Shown here: piece after piece, positions 11,464 to 20,959 of the stretch
How the letters are laid out: the number at the start of each line of letters is the position of its first letter
Numbering within the stretch: position 1 is the first letter of the stretch
IMG/VR virus record: IMGVR_UViG_3300002835_001336
Location: 1-20,983 of that record
Source: a virus
Strand: one strand, 5' to 3'
DNA length: 20,983 nucleotides
Position numbers and translations under genes: made by a program
Notes under the pieces: model-generated
The model's input: the letters and a program-made list of their open reading frames with translations, nothing else
Told to the model about the DNA's origin: nothing
Databases searched by the model: none

Positions 11464-12666
11464 CTAGCCGGTCCTCCGCACTGTGAGATACAGCTGGGCC
11501 AACCTGCAGCCACCACCAGCCTGCGTGATGTCAAACCGCAGAATATCACCCGCCGCTGCAGTCGTGATTGACAGCGTGCCGCTGCTGCCTTCGGTGCTGC
11601 CGATCGCAATTTGCGGGAGGGTGCTGTAGATCGAGGTGGCGTTCAGCCTAGCATTGACGATAAACGCAGACCCTGATGCAGCAGTTTCCGCGCTCAGGGC
11701 TGACGCCAGGATTTGTGCAGGCCAGGGAAACCTAAACCGCTCAACTGCGGTTGCTGCGGTTGGGTCGGCCTGGGTGCCGCTGAGTTCTACCACCAGTGAC
11801 TCAGAATCTCGCTGGTGAACGTGATCTTCCCTGGCGTAGTCCGTGCTGGTGCCGATCGCTGCAGTAGCCGCCAGCGCTGCTGGCGCAGCATCGGCGGGAG
11901 ATGGGGCAAGCCCTGCCGGCCCCTCAGGCCCCTGGGGGCCTGTCGCGCCGGTGGCACCCGTCGCCCCCGTCGCACCCGTTGACCCCTGCGGGCCTGCAGG
12001 GCCCTGAGGCCCGGTCACCCCTTGAGGCCCCTGCGGGCCAACCAAAGACGCCAGCCATTGTGCTTCGGTCCCTGAAAAACCGCCAGCCACGGCCGCCTGG
12101 TAGGCGCTACTGCCCGTTGCGCCGGTAGGGCCCTGAGGGCCCTGCGGTCCAATCGGGCCAGGAACCGTTGACGCAGCACCCGCCGGCCCAGCAGGCCCTG
12201 CAGGCCCAGTTGGCCCCGGAACCGTCGAGGCAGCACCTGCGGCCCCCGTCGCACCCGTTGACCCCTGCGGGCCTGCTGGGCCTGCAGGGCCTGCTGGGCC
12301 TTGAGGTCCTGCCGCTCCCGTAGCCCCGCTAGCGCCTGGCGGCCCGGTTGGCCCCTCAGGACCCTGGGGGCCAACCCCTAAAATCGCCGCCACCGCTGAG
12401 ACCGCTGCATTCCGGGTATTGATCGGCCCCGCCGTGCCGGTGCCAGTGCCAGCACCAGTGGCTACAAAATAAGCACCAACTGTATTTGATTCGGCGCCAA
12501 TTGCCGTGAAAGAGGTATTGCCTACGCTGATAATTTGATACGCTTGCCCAACAACAAACGCCCCGGCCGTTACCGCCGCGCCGATGCGGTCCAACACCAG
12601 GCGGTCGCTGCCCTGGACGCTGCCCAGGTCTGGCAGTTGGGAAATCGTGAGCGGTGTTTGGGTCAT
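11464..12666 (-). CDS. Collagen-like tail fibre protein
   Basis: The 400-residue protein has an N-terminal domain (1-98) including [20 protein letters not shown] and [17 protein letters not shown], a motif I know from other phage fibres. Gly-X-Y collagen-like runs occupy about 99-186 and 210-252, split by [20 protein letters not shown], a common insertion in phage collagen fibres. Next come [16 protein letters not shown], another fibre hallmark, and a beta-rich trimerising or binding head (about 290-400). It should form a trimeric rod with a terminal knob. The gene starts 3 nt after the gpFII-like gene. Its location between head and tail genes is unusual. The collagen repeats use GC-rich codons and contain long direct DNA repeats. 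Confidence 0.93.
11963..12276. repeat. 35-bp perfect direct repeat pair inside the collagen-like gene
   Basis: Positions 11963-11997 and 12242-12276 are identical over 35 bp and lie 279 bp (93 codons) apart in the same frame, coding for the repeated [11 protein letters not shown] segment. Recombination between them would delete or duplicate 93 residues of collagen rod without shifting the frame. Confidence 0.85.
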
Positions 12667-13484: not shown

Positions 13485-15584
13485 TCATGCGCCAGAGCTG
13501 CGATAAATAAAACGGAAATCCTCAATGGCGCAACCAAAATCAGAACGAGCCAGCAGCTTCAGGCCATCAGGATCCCTTTCGGGCTCTGATGTAATGGTAG
13601 GACCAGGCTCGTCTGCCAGGTAACCCCACACCATGCCAGGCGTTCTAGTTGGGCCAGCGGCTGCATACCATTGCGTTGCGGAACCATCAAGACGTGGCTC
13701 AACTATTAATTGCATCTTCCTTGCGTAGGGATTGGGCCCAGAGTTTCCAGTCAACGCAGCAGGAGCGTAACCATCAGGATAGAGAAATTGCTCGGCAGTT
13801 GCTTCTAGATCTGATGGAACAATCATAAACTCAGGGGTCAAATTAACCGTAACGTTGCTTATATCTTTTTGCTTTCGCATTGCCTTTCGGGCTGCGTTTA
13901 CACCGGCAATACCAATGGCGCCTGTGCCGGTGTTATTGTGAGCTGCATTAAACAATGCAAGACCGTCTACCGATACAGTGGCATCGCCAGTGATCATTGC
14001 CCATATAAGATTGGATTCCAAGCGACGAAACCCACGGCCTAAAAATTCAGGAGTTCGCTCCAAGGCAGACAAATCATCATTGATAATTGCTTGCCGAGAA
14101 ATTACAATTTTTTTGGTATATGTAAACAGCCTCCAGGTAGCTTCTGCTTCCTTCAGAGTGCCTGTTTTGTATTCGCCGCCTTCAGGCGTAAGCTCTGGCG
14201 TAAGATCGGCGGCAATAGTTAAATCGCTTGCTCTTTTGAAATCTGGTAAATTTCGTTGGCGTGCAAGCCCCTTCCAGGTATGAGGCTCTTCTTCGTAGAA
14301 TTGAGTTAAAGATTTGCCTGCTAGATTAGAAAACAGCAATGGAAAATCGCTAGTGCTGTGCATGGCCATGGCCACTAGCTCATTTTTAGACCTACCCACA
14401 GTGCTTATGCCCCGCGAGTTGGCATAGGCCCTTACGCATTCCATCAAGGAATAACCTCGATACTCTTGGCCAACGTCAGAGATCTGGGCCAGAGGATTGA
14501 TCCGTGCGTACAGCATGTCCCCAATGCCGGCCATCACAGTGTCCCCCGCGTCGCGGGTGACCTGGAGGCGGGCAGGGTGGCCCGCCTTGCTGGCGACGGT
14601 TTCAAGCGGGCCGGCGTGGGCCTTCACAATTTCGAGGGCAACATCAGCAAACGGCTTACCGCTGTCAACCATGGCTTGCACCGCGATAGGAGCGATATTG
14701 GCCTCGGCCGCGCAACGGCGGATTTCAATTTCGCGCTGTGCATTGGCAAGAGCCACGGAATCCGCAACAGCGGTTGAGGCAACGGGGCTTACGGCGGCTT
14801 GCACTACTGCAAGGGCAACAGGGGCAGCTTCGGTAGAAGCAACCACGGGAGGCGCTTCGGTGACGGCGGCCGGTGCGCTCCCGGCCTGATCTTGCGTGGG
14901 CATGTGTTCAGCTCGGGAGTGTTCAGGGTGATCTCCTGATTCTATTCTAACCATTGACGCCAGGGCCTTAGACACCCACCCTGGAGGGTTAGGGAATCGC
15001 CCCGCAGGCAGAGCCGGGACGCTGGCACGCACGTCTACCGGGTCGATCACTGCATCAATCAGGCCAGCCGCCAGGGCCGCTTCGGCGGTAAACCAGGTAC
15101 CACCCCCCTGCGCCGCGCCCATCCATTCCAAAATCTGTTCGACCGATTGGCCTGATGCCTTGGCATAGGTGGTGGAATAAACCTGGGAGTGCACGCGCAG
15201 CATGGCCGCCGCGGCATCCATCGAATCGGCGTCTCCAACCGATCCGCCCCAGCAGTTATGGATCATCAGCAGGGCGTTGCTTGGCATCAAGCGGCGATCA
15301 CCCTTGGCCTTGCTGATGGCCATTGGGACAATCGAGCCGGCAGATGCCACCAAGCCATCCACCACATAATCCTTTCTGCCCTTGTAAGCCGCCAACACGT
15401 TATGGATTGCAATCCCTTCGGCTGCCGCGCCGCCAGGTGAAAACAGGTGAATCTCAACATCACGCCCCCCTGCAGCGTCCAGCGCTCGGGCCACGTCGTC
15501 AACCAACACGTCAACCCCGACTTCGCCATAGAGCCGCAACACTGGGGCAGTGGCGGCGGCTTTAACGGTTACTCCTGGGGCCAT
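13485..15584 (-). CDS. ClpP-like prohead protease fused to major capsid protein
   Basis: This 699-residue protein joins two phage functions. Residues 1-195 are a ClpP/S49-type serine protease: LFSPGGAAAEG forms the oxyanion region, LVASAGS gives nucleophile Ser81, MIHNCWGG gives His109, and GLIDAVID gives Asp167. Residues about 205-335 are Ala/Pro-rich and then helical and charged, like a scaffold or delta domain. Residues about 340-699 match the Mu gpT/HK97-like major capsid family (NLAGKSLTQFYEEEPHTWKG, KKIVISRQAIINDD, GLALFNAAHNN, RSDFGCAIEDFRFIYRSSGA). The protease would release the capsid domain during head maturation. ATG at 15584 is the first start after an in-frame stop. This fusion type is already known in phages. 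No stop or restart divides the two parts. Confidence 0.93.
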   Translation of the reverse strand: MAPGVTVKAAATAPVLRLYGEVGVDVLVDDVARALDAAGGRDVEIHLFSPGGAAAEGIAIHNVLAAYKGRKDYVVDGLVASAGSIVPMAISKAKGDRRLMPSNALLMIHNCWGGSVGDADSMDAAAAMLRVHSQVYSTTYAKASGQSVEQILEWMGAAQGGGTWFTAEAALAAGLIDAVIDPVDVRASVPALPAGRFPNPPGWVSKALASMVRIESGDHPEHSRAEHMPTQDQAGSAPAAVTEAPPVVASTEAAPVALAVVQAAVSPVASTAVADSVALANAQREIEIRRCAAEANIAPIAVQAMVDSGKPFADVALEIVKAHAGPLETVASKAGHPARLQVTRDAGDTVMAGIGDMLYARINPLAQISDVGQEYRGYSLMECVRAYANSRGISTVGRSKNELVAMAMHSTSDFPLLFSNLAGKSLTQFYEEEPHTWKGLARQRNLPDFKRASDLTIAADLTPELTPEGGEYKTGTLKEAEATWRLFTYTKKIVISRQAIINDDLSALERTPEFLGRGFRRLESNLIWAMITGDATVSVDGLALFNAAHNNTGTGAIGIAGVNAARKAMRKQKDISNVTVNLTPEFMIVPSDLEATAEQFLYPDGYAPAALTGNSGPNPYARKMQLIVEPRLDGSATQWYAAAGPTRTPGMVWGYLADEPGPTITSEPERDPDGLKLLARSDFGCAIEDFRFIYRSSGA

Positions 15585-17364: not shown

Positions 17365-19362
17365 TTACCTCTTTAGCCAACCTTTGCGCCGGTCGGAACC
17401 GCCTGCATTAGAGCCCTTCAACCAGCCCGACCGCTGGGGGTCTCGTGCTGGGGCCGGCGCTGCCCCTCCCCCTCCCCCTCCCGGCGCCTGGGTGCCCAAG
17501 GTGCGGGCGAGCTGGGCCCACATGGTGCCTTTGGCATAGCGGCGGGACACCAATAGCATCGCGGCATAGGCCATCCTGGTGCAGTCGCCGCCTTCGTCGT
17601 TGCAGCCTGGAGGATTGATCCAGTGGTATTCGGTGCGGGCCCGGGTCTTCGGGACGTACTTCCAGGGGAACAGCTCCCTCAGGAACTCATCTGTAGAAGC
17701 CTGCCCAAAATGCAGGTATCGAGGCCCTGGCTGCTCAACCCGAAGCATGGCCTTCAGCATGTTCACACTGGCGTCGTAACCAGTGGTGTAGAGCAATCCG
17801 CCGCGGCGGGTGACTGATTGATTCTTGCGGTTGACCTCTGTCGGCTTGCCCTTCTGGATGATCGGCAGCCCCTTGGTGCCTGATCCTTTCATCGCAACCC
17901 ATCGATCGGGACGGGCGCGGCAGAAATCCTCTACCTGCTTGCTGCACAAGCCGCCATGGTCAACACCCCCCAGGTTGGCCTTCATGGTTCCCCCGTCCTG
18001 ACGGGCCCAGGCCTTCGTGCTGATCACGTCCAGCTGCTCCCATACCTCCGGCTGCTGGGGGTCCCCCTCGATTTCAAAATGGGCAATGTGCCAGCCCTCC
18101 TCACCAGCCCCCCAGCCCCAGAGGGTGTAGACCAGCCGCTCGCCCACGGTGCCGCCGCCGCCCTGCACATCCACTCCATCGGTCAGCAGCAGCACTCCAG
18201 TCGGAATGTCCCACTCCTCGCCGTCCCATGGGTAGCCATTGCCGAAGCCTACATTTTTTCGCCGCTCGGCTAGGCCGTCGCCGGTAAGTTTGCTGGTTAT
18301 TTCATCAGCCCATGGCACCCCTAAATCTGTATTATGAAATGTTTGCATGGGCGCCACATTCCCCATTTTCATTTGCTCCAGCGCTACCCGATGCCGGGCC
18401 ACCAGCTCGGGCCACATGGCCGCCCGGTGGTAGCTCATGCCAGGGCCCACCTGCTGTGATCGCCAGATCGGCACACCGTTGCGCAAGACCTGCTTGCTGC
18501 GATCCAGACCCAGCGGGCAGGCCCAGCCAGCTGCCTTGTCCATCGAGTACAGGTTGCTGTAGTCGATTGGGGTTTCGCAATGCTCGCAACGAATCCGCCC
18601 TTCATCAGGACCTTCCTTTATGAAATTCTCCCATCGCAGTTGTTGGTAATGGTTACAGTGCGGGCATGGATAATATCTATACTGTTGATCGCCTTTCTTA
18701 AAGGCTTGCTCCATGTAATCATTAGGGTATATTGGCGTGCCGCCAATCGTAAAGAACGGATCCCAAATGTTACCGGCCCGCTGAAACAGGTTTCCAATGG
18801 TGTCACCTTCGGGACTGTCGTAGGTCGCCGGCTCTTCAAACAGGATTGGGCTTCGCTCCACCCGACGACCAGACCGAGGCGTTGCGGCGCTTACCAGGTG
18901 GATCAATGCACCATTGACAAGCTGCTTAAAATCGTAGCTATTTTTTAACGCTCCTTTTGTTTTTTTATTATTTAATTGTCCTTTTAGCCTGGGTATTCCA
19001 TGGTTATCGTCAAACATTGAATCTATATCTTCGGTGCTGTATTTCTGTACTTCAGAGTCTGTAGGCTGCACCAGCATAATCTTAGATCGGCGCCAGTCCG
19101 AGAAAAACACGATTACTGCTTTCACGTACTCTGACCAGCCAACCCGCGACGGCTTCTGGCAAACCATGCACTCAACCTCTGGGTCAGTTGGCGCCAAGAA
19201 CCAATCTTCTTGATATGGCCTAGTTCTCCACTTCTGCCGGCCATCAGTTGCGCTTGTAACATAATAATGAGTATTACTATAATCCAGCATCGTCATAAAC
19301 GGTTTAGGCTTTACCATGGCGGCAAGCCGTTTGGCCATCTTTCGGATATTGCGATCAATCAT
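17365..19362 (-). CDS. terL: Terminase large subunit (lambda gpA family)
   Basis: The 665-residue motor-nuclease has the gpA-type features. The Walker A-like motif CQKPSRVGWSE lies at about residues 68-78, parallel to lambda's ARVGYSK. A probable Walker B is SPILFEEP at about 171-178. A zinc-ribbon-like pair (CPHC at 233-236, CEHC at 259-262) follows. The RNase H-like nuclease region starts LLLTDGVDVQGGGG at about 391, with GGVDHGGLCSKQVEDFCRAR later. It cuts concatemeric DNA and drives packaging. The C-terminal 45 residues are Gly/Ala/Pro-rich and contain GWLK twice, likely a flexible portal-contact tail. The start overlaps the small subunit stop as ATGA. The segment near 18900-19130 is strikingly AT-rich. 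Confidence 0.95.
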   Translation of the reverse strand: MIDRNIRKMAKRLAAMVKPKPFMTMLDYSNTHYYVTSATDGRQKWRTRPYQEDWFLAPTDPEVECMVCQKPSRVGWSEYVKAVIVFFSDWRRSKIMLVQPTDSEVQKYSTEDIDSMFDDNHGIPRLKGQLNNKKTKGALKNSYDFKQLVNGALIHLVSAATPRSGRRVERSPILFEEPATYDSPEGDTIGNLFQRAGNIWDPFFTIGGTPIYPNDYMEQAFKKGDQQYRYYPCPHCNHYQQLRWENFIKEGPDEGRIRCEHCETPIDYSNLYSMDKAAGWACPLGLDRSKQVLRNGVPIWRSQQVGPGMSYHRAAMWPELVARHRVALEQMKMGNVAPMQTFHNTDLGVPWADEITSKLTGDGLAERRKNVGFGNGYPWDGEEWDIPTGVLLLTDGVDVQGGGGTVGERLVYTLWGWGAGEEGWHIAHFEIEGDPQQPEVWEQLDVISTKAWARQDGGTMKANLGGVDHGGLCSKQVEDFCRARPDRWVAMKGSGTKGLPIIQKGKPTEVNRKNQSVTRRGGLLYTTGYDASVNMLKAMLRVEQPGPRYLHFGQASTDEFLRELFPWKYVPKTRARTEYHWINPPGCNDEGGDCTRMAYAAMLLVSRRYAKGTMWAQLARTLGTQAPGGGGGGAAPAPARDPQRSGWLKGSNAGGSDRRKGWLKR

Positions 19363-20018
19363 TCCGGTAGCTCTTCAAACTCGTTAGAAGATACAGATTC
19401 GAAAATTTCGGATATAATCCTTTCAATTTCGCTTAGCTCTTGGTGGGTAAGGTGGGGGATCATTGCCTTGATTCGCTTATGAGCGGAGCTTGCTAGGGTG
19501 GTTAATTGGAGCAAGACAGCGTTATAGGCTATTTCCATATCTGCTCTATAGGCTAGCTCTTTTGCTTTTTCCATTCGATCCATTCGAGCAATCAAGCGCT
19601 TTTCGCGCTCGTGCAACGCCCTCTCCTTGTTGAAATCCGCTTTCTCTGTGTCTGGATCGTCGTCCAGTCCGTCGATTGGATCGGCGGGGTCCGGCAGTGT
19701 TTCCGTTTTTGGCTTAGGCGATGGCCGGGCCTTTGCAGGCTGCTGAGCCCGCTTGGCCGTGGGCACCTGGTCTTCTGGGGTGGCAGTCTTCGGTCTGGGC
19801 CCCTGATCTTGGCCGGCATTGGTCCCACGGGGCGCCGGGTCGGTGGCCCGTGCCCACTGCTCATCAGCAAGAACCGGGTCAATCTCCCAGCCCTTTCCTT
19901 GACGCTCAACCGCTGGAGATTGCAGCCGACCATTCTTAATCGCCCTGAGCACTGATACATGGGTGGCCCCTCGGAGGCCCAGGGCCTTGCGGTGATCGGC
20001 GTACTGCTGGAGGTTCAC
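19359..20018 (-). CDS. terS: Terminase small subunit (Nu1-like)
   Basis: This 219-residue protein lies directly upstream of terL and overlaps it. The N-terminus (LQQYADHRKALGLRGATHVS, VLRAIKNGRL, GKGWEIDP) reads as the winged helix-turn-helix of Nu1-type small terminases, which bind the cos site. A disordered Pro/Lys-rich linker (about 60-125) follows. Then comes a helical coiled-coil part (KADFNKERALHEREKRLIAR, DRMEKAKELAYRADMEIAYN, KRIKAMIPHLTHQELSEIER) that would form the oligomer and recruit the large subunit. The start is GTG at 20018; no ATG, GTG or TTG lies in frame upstream although the frame stays open for 44 more codons. There is no clear Shine-Dalgarno. Confidence 0.85.
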   Translation of the reverse strand: MNLQQYADHRKALGLRGATHVSVLRAIKNGRLQSPAVERQGKGWEIDPVLADEQWARATDPAPRGTNAGQDQGPRPKTATPEDQVPTAKRAQQPAKARPSPKPKTETLPDPADPIDGLDDDPDTEKADFNKERALHEREKRLIARMDRMEKAKELAYRADMEIAYNAVLLQLTTLASSAHKRIKAMIPHLTHQELSEIERIISEIFESVSSNEFEELPE

Positions 20019-20060
20019 TCTGCCCGCGTCACCGGCATCGGATTTGTACCCATGGACATA

Positions 20061-20092
20061 TTGTAACCAGCTGCGTACAAAATAGGTTACAA
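20061..20092. repeat. Inverted repeat TTGTAACC / GGTTACAA
   Basis: A perfect 8-bp inverted repeat occupies 20061-20068 and 20085-20092 with a 16-bp spacer. A second pair, TTTGTAC (20043-20049) and GTACAAA (20075-20081), interleaves with it. Such spaced dyads suit a dimeric DNA-binding protein, for example the Nu1-like small terminase or a late regulator. Both lie in the predicted leader of terS. Confidence 0.6.
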
Positions 20093-20141
20093 CCTTGTGA
20101 TGCCAAGCGATTACACCGGTTACGGCCTGGCCCTGGCAAGG

Positions 20142-20170
20142 GTTGTACCTTTATTGAGAAGCGTTATCAA
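20142..20170 (-). promoter_or_regulatory. Candidate sigma-70-type promoter for the terminase/late operon
   Basis: On the minus strand TTGATA (20170-20165) and TACAAC (20147-20142) are separated by exactly 17 bp, matching the -35 consensus at 5 of 6 and the -10 at 4 of 6 positions. Transcription would start near 20135, giving a leader of about 117 nt before the terS GTG. It would drive the whole late run. The -35 element overlaps the imperfect hairpin. Unproven, since late phage promoters often depend on phage factors. Confidence 0.4.
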
Positions 20171-20232
20171 CAGATAAATCGCGGCTTCGTGGCTCCCTCG
20201 CTATGTGTCGCCGGGAGGACCCAAGCCCAAAC

Positions 20233-20301
20233 CCCTTGGTATGACTTGGTTCTTGGCAGATGAATGACTGAGGTTTGCTGAGATCCCTTGCTATGACTAG
20301 G
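20233..20301. repeat. 17-bp imperfect direct repeat downstream of the gpZ-like gene
   Basis: CCCTTGGTATGACTTGG (20233-20249) and CCCTTGCTATGACTAGG (20285-20301) agree at 15 of 17 positions and start 52 bp apart. The second copy sits just past the stop of the gpZ-like gene. Two copies ahead of the terminase genes could be protein-binding sites, possibly part of cos. No terminator-like hairpin with a U tract was seen here. Confidence 0.6.
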
Positions 20302-20308
20302 CCGCGCA

Positions 20309-20959
20309 TCATCGCCCCCCATAGCCCCTGGCGGCCGAGTCCAGGGCCCGCTTGTAGCCCGCTATGAAGCTCCTGTTGATCTCGATGTTGATCTCGGTCT
20401 GGATCAATTTGCTGTGCTCGCCTCCGTCGAACATGCGTGCGACCGATGGGCCGTAGACCACCTGCAACCGCCTCTTGCCGTCAGGCTTGCGCTTGTCCCC
20501 GACTCTGAAGGGCAGCATGACGCCACCCCGGCCCATGGCCATGAAGGTAGTTGGGTAGTCCTGGCGCTTGCCTCGCAGGATGCTTGCTCGCCCTGGTCTG
20601 CCCCTTTTGGTGGCTTTTCCCCAGCCACGGCCACGGCCTAGCCCTGGGAGCCCTGTGGCGCGGGTTCCGGGCCTAAACCCAAACTGACTGAGCGTTGGTG
20701 CTCGTGCTGCGAATGTGAGAGTTGCCTCCCCTCTGCTGGCCAAACCAGTAAAGAGACTTACATCTTGTTTGATACGCCTTGATCCAATATTATATCTTTG
20801 GCTAATACTTTTGCCTGCTTGCTTATTGGCAGACGTAGCAGCAGCCAAGATCCCCGCCCTTGTTGCTTTTTGAAACAATTTGGGATCAAGGAAGGCCCGC
20901 ATTTTTTCTAGCTGGCTGATGCCTTCGACCTTTACTCTGATGAATTCGTTGGTGCCCAT
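20309..20959 (-). CDS. Minor tail protein Z-like (tail completion)
   Basis: The 216-residue protein resembles lambda gpZ and related tail-completion proteins. It has an N-terminal helix with KATRAGILAAATSANKQAGK, YNIGSRRIKQDV (a hallmark of the family), a basic Gly/Arg-rich middle (GRGRGWGKATKRGRPG), FMAMGRGGVMLPFRVGDKRK, VVYGPSVARMFDGG, and a C-terminal helix (EINRSFIAGYKRALDSAARG). gpZ-type proteins finish the head-proximal end of the tail. In lambda the gene lies between FII and U; here it is upstream of the terminase. A purine-rich GGGGGA precedes the ATG at a short 3-nt spacing. Confidence 0.75.
   Translation of the reverse strand: MGTNEFIRVKVEGISQLEKMRAFLDPKLFQKATRAGILAAATSANKQAGKSISQRYNIGSRRIKQDVSLFTGLASRGEATLTFAARAPTLSQFGFRPGTRATGLPGLGRGRGWGKATKRGRPGRASILRGKRQDYPTTFMAMGRGGVMLPFRVGDKRKPDGKRRLQVVYGPSVARMFDGGEHSKLIQTEINIEINRSFIAGYKRALDSAARGYGGR

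What the first reader, a model, noticed from the sequence alone, without database searches (positions are those of the whole stretch)
20019..20308. Candidate cos site and operator array ahead of terS
The 290-bp gap holds three GGTTAC motifs, with starts 22 and 33 bp apart (near two and three helical turns), interleaved inverted repeats, a bulged hairpin and a 17-bp direct repeat. The terminase is of lambda type and its small subunit has a winged-helix domain, so a cos site is expected here. The motifs are candidate TerS binding sites.
Basis: partly seen in the sequence, partly recalled or inferred. Interest (0 to 1): 0.5.

Follow-up and report, generated by a model that had tools for sequence, protein, structure and literature searches.

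The report
Lambda-type DNA packaging site, swappable specificity
The gap ahead of the terminase genes is very probably the phage's DNA packaging and cutting site, built like that of phage lambda; its recognition motifs change together with the DNA-binding end of the small terminase, so related viruses seem to trade matched lock-and-key cassettes.

Summary
The 290-bp gap (20019-20308, read on the minus strand) is very probably a lambda-type cos site. Shown in relatives: (1) an invariant GGGTCCT (window 20216-20222), the 7-mer found 30 nt before the cut in lambda; (2) contig ends pile up at one column (21 of 61 contigs whose terS-side end was visible in one scan); (3) two linear relatives (41,987 and 48,419 bp) end in identical 12-nt repeats at that column, the length of lambda's cohesive ends; (4) a 22-bp palindrome-like block follows, and the first recognition motif abuts it at base 47 from the cut (lambda R3 50-65, N15 48-60); (5) the motif follows the TerS N-terminal domain in 44 of 44 testable rows although that domain switched at least 9 times on the TerL tree.

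Window repeats alone are not significant. The window's own ends were not observed; its predicted overhang is 20185-20196. Against: a published relative, S-LBS1, was called headful. New variant of a known kind: several matched TerS/cosB pairs on one chassis, plus an element not known from lambda.

The parts
20309..20959 (-). last right-arm gene, neck/tail-completion (gpZ-like) protein
   Evidence: Pfam Minor_tail_Z 2.6e-4 (below its cut-off), PHROG 27 2.8e-15
20233..20301 (-). two copies (20233-20249, 20285-20301) of an AGTCATaCCAAGGG element upstream of cosQ; role unknown, not part of the core site
   Evidence: recurs upstream of cosQ in several right-arm types, in both orientations; not seen upstream of cosQ in the gamma-type sequences printed
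20216..20222 (-). cosQ, GGGTCCT
   Evidence: 7 of 7 columns invariant in 14 sequences; same 7-mer 30 nt before the cut in lambda and near the N15 end
20185..20196 (-). predicted 12-nt cohesive end GGAGCCACGAAG (cosN); minus-strand nick between 20197 and 20196, plus-strand nick between 20184 and 20185
   Evidence: homologous contig starts; 12-nt terminal repeats in G017 and G029; not observed for the window itself
20151..20172 (-). block A, TGTTGATAACGCTTCTCAATAA, palindrome-like conserved element between cosN and R3
   Evidence: 19 of 22 columns invariant; found with TerS classes N1, N1', N2 and those of L126 and L232, not in the N5 group or S-LBS1; 9-1-9 perfect palindrome in G017
20141..20150 (-). 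R3, first TerS-type site AGGTACAACC, bp 47-56 from the predicted cut
   Evidence: 8 of 10 columns invariant; sequence switches with TerS class
20085..20096 (-). R site, inverted (AAGGTTGTAACC)
   Evidence: conserved array
20073..20082 (-). R site, inverted (TTTTGTACGC)
   Evidence: conserved array
20057..20068 (-). R site, direct (GGTTACAATATG)
   Evidence: GGTTAC intact in 14 of 14
20042..20051 (-). R site, direct (GGGTACAAAT)
   Evidence: conserved array
   Evidence: intact in 9 of 14 sequences, inside the variable stretch
19359..20018 (-). terS; residues 1-58 predicted as a winged helix-turn-helix, 60-127 low confidence (probably disordered linker), C-terminal helices
   Evidence: PHROG 57 5.9e-11; models; fold
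17365..19362 (-). terL, lambda gpA family (ATPase and nuclease domains)
   Evidence: Pfam GpA_ATPase 9.7e-34, GpA_nuclease 1.7e-57

Best explanation
The gap is a lambda-type cos site, ordered cosQ - cosN - block A - cosB - terS. TerS dimers bind the R sites through their winged-helix N-termini, the first at bp 47 from the cut. This anchors TerL, which makes two nicks 12 nt apart and leaves 5' cohesive ends (predicted GGAGCCACGAAG here). GGGTCCT acts as cosQ in termination. Block A is an added subsite, common to most TerS classes, whose binder is unknown. Shown: order, conservation, the ends in relatives, motif/TerS association. Inferred: actual binding, dimer formation, nicking, 5' polarity, cosQ function, and that the window's own ends are as in its relatives.
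For: Contig starts: 21 of 61 contigs of one TerL scan whose terS-side end is a contig end begin 25-27 nt before the TTGA of block A (19 of 53 before eight left-out loci were added); an equally loose block A match falls anywhere in 188 of about 2000 random 120-nt stretches. In the first set 8 of 13 near starts lie at 23-24 nt in that call's register. G017, 41,987 bp, ends in GCTGCCAAGTAG on both sides; G029, 48,419 bp, in GATCCACGCAGC, with one extra T at its left start. G017's TerL is 46% identical to the window's, and its TerS 50% identical to the N2 TerS of L143. GGGTCCT is identical in lambda and N15. R3 at bp 47 against 50-65 (lambda) and 48-60 (N15) in PMC9026076 section 6. Motif class matches TerS N-terminal class in 44 of 44 rows (in 7 of them on a single copy, the R3 one), 9 switches on the TerL tree, 6 supported independent pairs all in agreement, sign test 0.031. 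Cases found after the scheme was set: L232 and the N5 group have other N-termini and their own repeated motif. TerS 1-61 fold: best matches 7lwr and 7lxs, Z 7.2 and 7.1, rmsd 1.7 and 1.6 over 50 residues, small terminases related to lambda Nu1. The upstream open frame is not coding: 18 synonymous to 57 non-synonymous codon differences, against 138 to 62 in TerS codons 2-60.
Against: The window's own ends were not seen; its contig runs across the site. The 12-nt repeats come from only two records, G017 with a TerL 46% identical to the window's. Right ends are rare: none among 22 contigs found by the right-arm gene, none of the 23 and 17 contigs matched by two cosN patterns, two among 23 found by the primase, one of them (L214) with a 7-nt tail that does not match. 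Three left ends (L035, L077, L271) start 6-7 nt late. Synechococcus phage S-LBS1, with TerL 86% identical to G017's, was called headful with a terminus at 25,643 by PhageTerm (PMC6157547 section 23), and neither GGGTCCT nor block A was found ahead of its terS. TerS and cosB are neighbours in most rows, so their association could partly be linkage. Foldseek E-values were all above 0.1, and the aligner's notes warn that Z under 8 may mean only a common arrangement. Flanks of the cut lack lambda's conserved CG.
Confidence: 0.92

Rival explanations
1. A pac site of a headful phage: one precise initial cut, later cuts by head filling.
For: S-LBS1 was called headful; left-end contig starts far outnumber right-end ones.
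Against: Two linear records carry 12-nt terminal repeats at the site; a headful phage should not break contigs at pac, since most molecules run across it (established knowledge); cosQ is lambda-identical. The one right arm looked at carries a YqaJ recombinase and an AAA-domain protein, so right-arm fragments may simply be recognised as viral less often (inference).
Confidence: 0.04
2. An operator/promoter region for the late operon; TerS or another regulator binds it to control terS transcription, with no packaging role.
For: Palindrome-like block A and interleaved inverted repeats look like operators; the site lies directly ahead of terS.
Against: Contig ends and terminal repeats coincide with it; the first R site stays next to cosN when 0.86-1.7 kb of other DNA separates it from terS.
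Confidence: 0.03
3. The motif/TerS association is only linkage: cosB and terS travel on one DNA segment, without binding specificity.
For: Block A and terS are 51-233 bp apart in 28 of 36 distinct loci.
Against: At least 9 switches without one mismatch (44 of 44), including rows with 0.86-1.7 kb in between (5 N1' loci and 3 N2 loci); R3 position fixed; lambda, 21 and N15 precedent in PMC4669245 (passages).
Confidence: 0.1

Closest known systems
cos of phage lambda (cosQ, cosN, cosB with R3-I1-R2-R1)
   Same: GGGTCCT 26 nt (window) or 30 nt (lambda) before the cut; 12-nt ends in relatives; first R site near bp 50; sites in both orientations; terS start at bp 179 (lambda 191); gpA-family TerL; Nu1-like wHTH
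   Different: No conserved block where lambda has its IHF site; block A between cosN and R3; different R sequence; cosN flanks lack CG; distant TerL (lambda's own TerL was not aligned; listed hits other than S-LBS1 are 23-27% identical)
cos of phage N15 (single R3)
   Same: cosQ and R3 position (bp 48-60)
   Different: Window has five R sites and block A
cos of E. coli PICIs with Rpp proteins
   Same: Same cosQ-cosN chassis with other R3 specificity at bp 47-65 (PMC9026076)
   Different: Here specificity changes sit in the phage's own TerS, not in a separate redirecting protein
Synechococcus phage S-LBS1 terS-terL region
   Same: TerL 45% identical to the window's and 86% to G017's; terS preceded by an array of its own 11-mer repeats
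   Different: No cosQ or block A found; published as headful

Membership tests
lambda-type cos site | conserved 7-bp cosQ upstream of the cut | tested here: met
   GGGTCCT, 7 of 7 invariant in 14 N1 sequences; same in lambda and N15; some distant relatives have GGGTCCC (L159, L267 and L281, G029)
lambda-type cos site | 12-base cohesive ends | tested here: met
   12-nt terminal repeats in two linear relatives; not observable for the window
lambda-type cos site | ends are 5' extensions | tested here: inconclusive
   Four odd ends (L035, L077, L271, L214) fit tailing of recessed 3' ends in one library type; library type and tail composition are inferred
lambda-type cos site | first TerS site (R3) about 47-65 bp from the left end | tested here: met
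   bp 47-56; literature values
lambda-type cos site | R2 oriented opposite to R3 and R1 | tested here: met
   order direct, inverted, inverted, direct, direct in the window
lambda-type cos site | IHF site between R3 and R2 | tested here: inconclusive
   that stretch is variable, 10 of 44 columns invariant; no IHF model was scanned; N15 also lacks one
lambda-type cos site | conserved CG flanking both nicks | tested here: not met
   flanks vary: GAG, GTG, GCC before the cut; so it is lambda-like in plan, not a member of the narrow group with lambda-like end sequences
lambda-type cos site | TerS with N-terminal wHTH | tested here: met
   predicted wHTH, pLDDT 89; best fold match 7lwr, Z 7.2, a lambda-Nu1 relative
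lambda-type cos site | TerS binds cosB specifically | not testable with these tools
   indirect support only: motif class follows TerS class in 44 of 44 rows
headful (pac) packaging site | permuted, heterogeneous ends | tested here: not met
   fixed ends at the site in two linear relatives; virion DNA itself not examined

The most novel reading that the evidence does not exclude
This virus family keeps one cos chassis (cosQ, cosN, usually block A) and exchanges matched TerS-NTD/R-site cassettes as packaging-specificity types, at least five of them with further candidates unexamined, perhaps driven by packaging parasites or by competition between co-infecting phages; block A is a new cos subsite, bound by a dimeric protein, that takes the place of IHF.
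Probability: 0.3. Interest if true: 0.8.

Novelty: new variant of a known kind. Interest (0 to 1): 0.6.

Why it matters
It carries the lambda-type cos plan, down to cosQ and 12-nt ends, to a large virus family seen here almost only as public metagenome contigs, whose nearest isolate found infects a freshwater Synechococcus, and supplies a natural set of matched TerS/DNA pairs from which the recognition code could be read and tested. It also shows that physical phage ends can be read from piled-up contig ends in public assemblies. If the swapping is selected, it points to conflict over packaging in nature.

Tried and rejected
Block A as a host regulator box (it resembles Fur/Zur-type palindromes, from recall): the exact core pattern occurs in 17 stretches of genome contigs, none titled as cyanobacterial; not supported, though looser host versions were not tested. 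Block A as a classical IHF site: considered by eye only. Protein-coding extension of terS upstream: rejected. Relatives by TerL in genome contigs: 7 stretches matched a pattern, none encoded a relative. Isolated phages with similar cos DNA: no blastn match. Profile search of TerS in solved structures: one match at E 0.8 to an unrelated protein; Foldseek on the full model gave nothing below E 0.6. L165 first looked like a right end, but L101 and L223 from the same contig run on, so it is only the edge of a stored stretch. Ends of eight long records: overlaps of 127 and 69 bp in two (G003, G004), read as circular assemblies, and none in six. Literature searches: none of the listed titles and abstract starts reports a cos site in this family; that covers only the open-access library and listings. 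PMC9026076 was read in sections 6 and 24 and in passages, PMC4669245 and PMC6612421 in passages, PMC6157547 in section 23 and passages.

Counts and selections: one search used 36 distinct loci after merging near-copies from 138; 35 fit the three-motif scheme (L041 with one copy only, its R3), and L232 has its own motif. One search used the 44 of 62 TerL rows in which a block A was found and that were not N5; 7 of the 44 rest on one motif copy. One search used 42 hand-picked contigs that start near the site (35 with a recognisable block A, 27 of them at 25-27 nt). One search took 53 of the 80 loci, judged from its table to have a contig end on the terS side; one search added eight that I had left out (61 of 80; 29 with a block A in the first 120 nt, 21 at 25-27 nt). 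Two of these eight were already in the first set. The motif patterns were chosen after seeing the alignments. In one search I marked L256 as not starting at a contig end; that was wrong and was put right.

Full report
What is there. The window is a 20,983-bp virus record. On the minus strand, in order: a gpZ-like gene, the 290-bp gap, terS, a gpA-type terL, a head-tail adaptor, a lambda-family portal and a ClpP-capsid fusion. The best TerL match among phage records is Synechococcus phage S-LBS1, 45%; a picocyanobacterial host is inferred from that alone.

Check of the observation. Inside one sequence they do not stand out: in 46% of dinucleotide shuffles some 6-mer reaches three copies. The question therefore went to relatives: 53 loci by TerL, 44 by TerS, 22 by the upstream gene, 56 stretches by the block A pattern, 23 and 17 by two cosN patterns, 23 by the primase, and the best 80 of more than 600 pattern matches by a second TerL.

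Anatomy. Read towards terS, the site holds GGGTCCT; then a variable spacer and cosN of several types that go with the right-arm context; then block A; then the R array; then terS. In 14 sequences of the window's TerS class, invariant columns are 7 of 7 in cosQ, 0 of 19 in the spacer, 1 of 12 in the cohesive end, 19 of 22 in block A, 8 of 10 in R3, 10 of 44 in the variable stretch and 42 of 55 in the array. Codon counts show that the open frame upstream of terS is conserved as DNA, not as protein.

Where it is cut. In the first set, 13 contigs begin within 40 nt before block A, 8 of them 23-24 nt before it, and 10 of the 13 start with GG. In the second scan, 61 of the 80 loci have a contig end on the terS side; 29 have a block A in the first 120 nt and 21 begin 25-27 nt before its TTGA core, 11 of these with GG. 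The same column in different cosN types is hard to explain by assembly branching. The primase search then gave G017, a 41,987-bp linear contig that ends GGGTCCT...GTGCC-GCTGCCAAGTAG and begins GCTGCCAAGTAG-CCCAG...block A-GGTTGC. A second record, G029, 48,419 bp, shares GATCCACGCAGC between its ends, with one extra T at the left start and GGGTCCC in place of GGGTCCT. Twelve bases is the lambda length (passage). Four ends do not fit at first: L035, L077 and L271 start 6-7 nt late with a purine leader, and L214 has seven pyrimidines after GAG. All four come from neighbouring IMG data sets (3300045999 to 3300046011). A library kit that adds a low-complexity tail (PMC6612421, passages) would produce this at recessed 3' ends, so they may mark the two nicks of a 5' overhang; that these data sets used such a kit, and the make-up of its tail, are inference and recall.

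Who reads it. TerS residues 1-61 are predicted as a winged helix-turn-helix with mean pLDDT 89. The best matches among 690 pre-ranked solved chains are 7lwr and 7lxs, Z 7.2 and 7.1, which a search with lambda Nu1 identifies as small terminases; excisionases and MerR proteins follow at 6.2 and below, and the tool warns that Z under 8 can be a common arrangement. TerS N-termini come in several classes. The repeated motif after block A changes with them: TACAA type for N1 and N1', GGTTGC for N2, GTGAGAC for L126, TGTGACA for L232, and, in the N5 group that shares cosQ and cosN but lacks block A, GCCTTA/GGCTAA repeats. S-LBS1 has an 11-mer array of its own. Further first-site sequences such as GGCGACC were seen and not examined. 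The TerL tree of 62 rows needs 18 changes of class. Among 44 rows with a readable array, N2 against N1/N1' switches nine times for both traits, without a mismatch; in 7 rows the call rests on one copy. In five N1' loci the array stays beside cosN although 0.86-1.7 kb lies between it and terS; in three N1' loci that were looked at (L011, L016, L022) ParB-like, methylase and Mom genes fill it.

Likely mechanism. As in lambda (PMC9026076 section 6 and passages, PMC4669245 passages), TerS bound at R3 would place TerL on cosN for two staggered nicks, with the other R sites stabilising the complex and cosQ acting at the next cos in termination. Positions agree: R3 starts at bp 47 and terS at bp 179 (lambda 50 and 191). 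Binding, nicking and termination are inferred, not shown. Block A, common to most TerS classes, should be read by something common to them, such as TerL, a host bending protein or a phage regulator; which is unknown.

Against this reading. The window's own ends were not seen. Right ends are scarce: two, against about thirty left ends. The one right arm looked at carries recombination and AAA-domain genes, so right-arm pieces may be recognised as viral less often, which is a guess. S-LBS1, with TerL 86% identical to G017's, was reported as headful with a terminus far from terS, and its terS gap lacks GGGTCCT and block A; either it differs or that call needs review. Linkage may explain part of the co-variation.

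Verdict. Lambda-type cos in plan, confidence 0.92; TerS recognition of the R array is likely; membership in the narrow group with lambda-like end sequences is not met, because the flanks of the nicks differ. New variant of a known kind.

Noticed in passing
L011:465-1728, L016:2606-4411, L022:815-2403, L041:3564-4355; G017 left arm: A cargo slot between the cos R sites and terS holds ParB-like plus C5 or N6/N4 methylase, Mom-family or HNH endonuclease genes (Pfam on L011, L016, L022 methylase and L041; L022's ParB-like gene and G017's gene placed by resemblance, read by eye).
   Followed up: partly
window 20233-20249, 20285-20301; L009:3478-3600; L037:1948: AGTCATaCCAAGGG element, one to four copies upstream of cosQ, in either orientation in different right-arm types, and also elsewhere in L037 beside an AT-rich stretch; role unknown.
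   Followed up: partly
L035, L077, L271 starts; L214 end: Purine leaders or pyrimidine tails of 6-7 nt at contig ends, all from neighbouring IMG data sets; look like library tailing at recessed 3' ends.
   Followed up: partly
   Followed up: no
S-LBS1 record MG271909.1, last 405 bases: A 116-bp exact duplication with many CTGCCTAACCT repeats; may be an assembly artefact at the genome end.
   Followed up: no
window 13485-15584: One 699-aa protein joins a ClpP-type protease and the major capsid domain.
   Followed up: no
window 11464-12666: Collagen-like repeat protein, probably a tail fibre.
   Followed up: no
L211 (lambda right end), L213 (N15 right end): Palindrome-like GATAATCATTATC (lambda) and GATAACTATTATC (N15) just upstream of cosQ, somewhat like block A though on the other side of the cut.
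   Followed up: no
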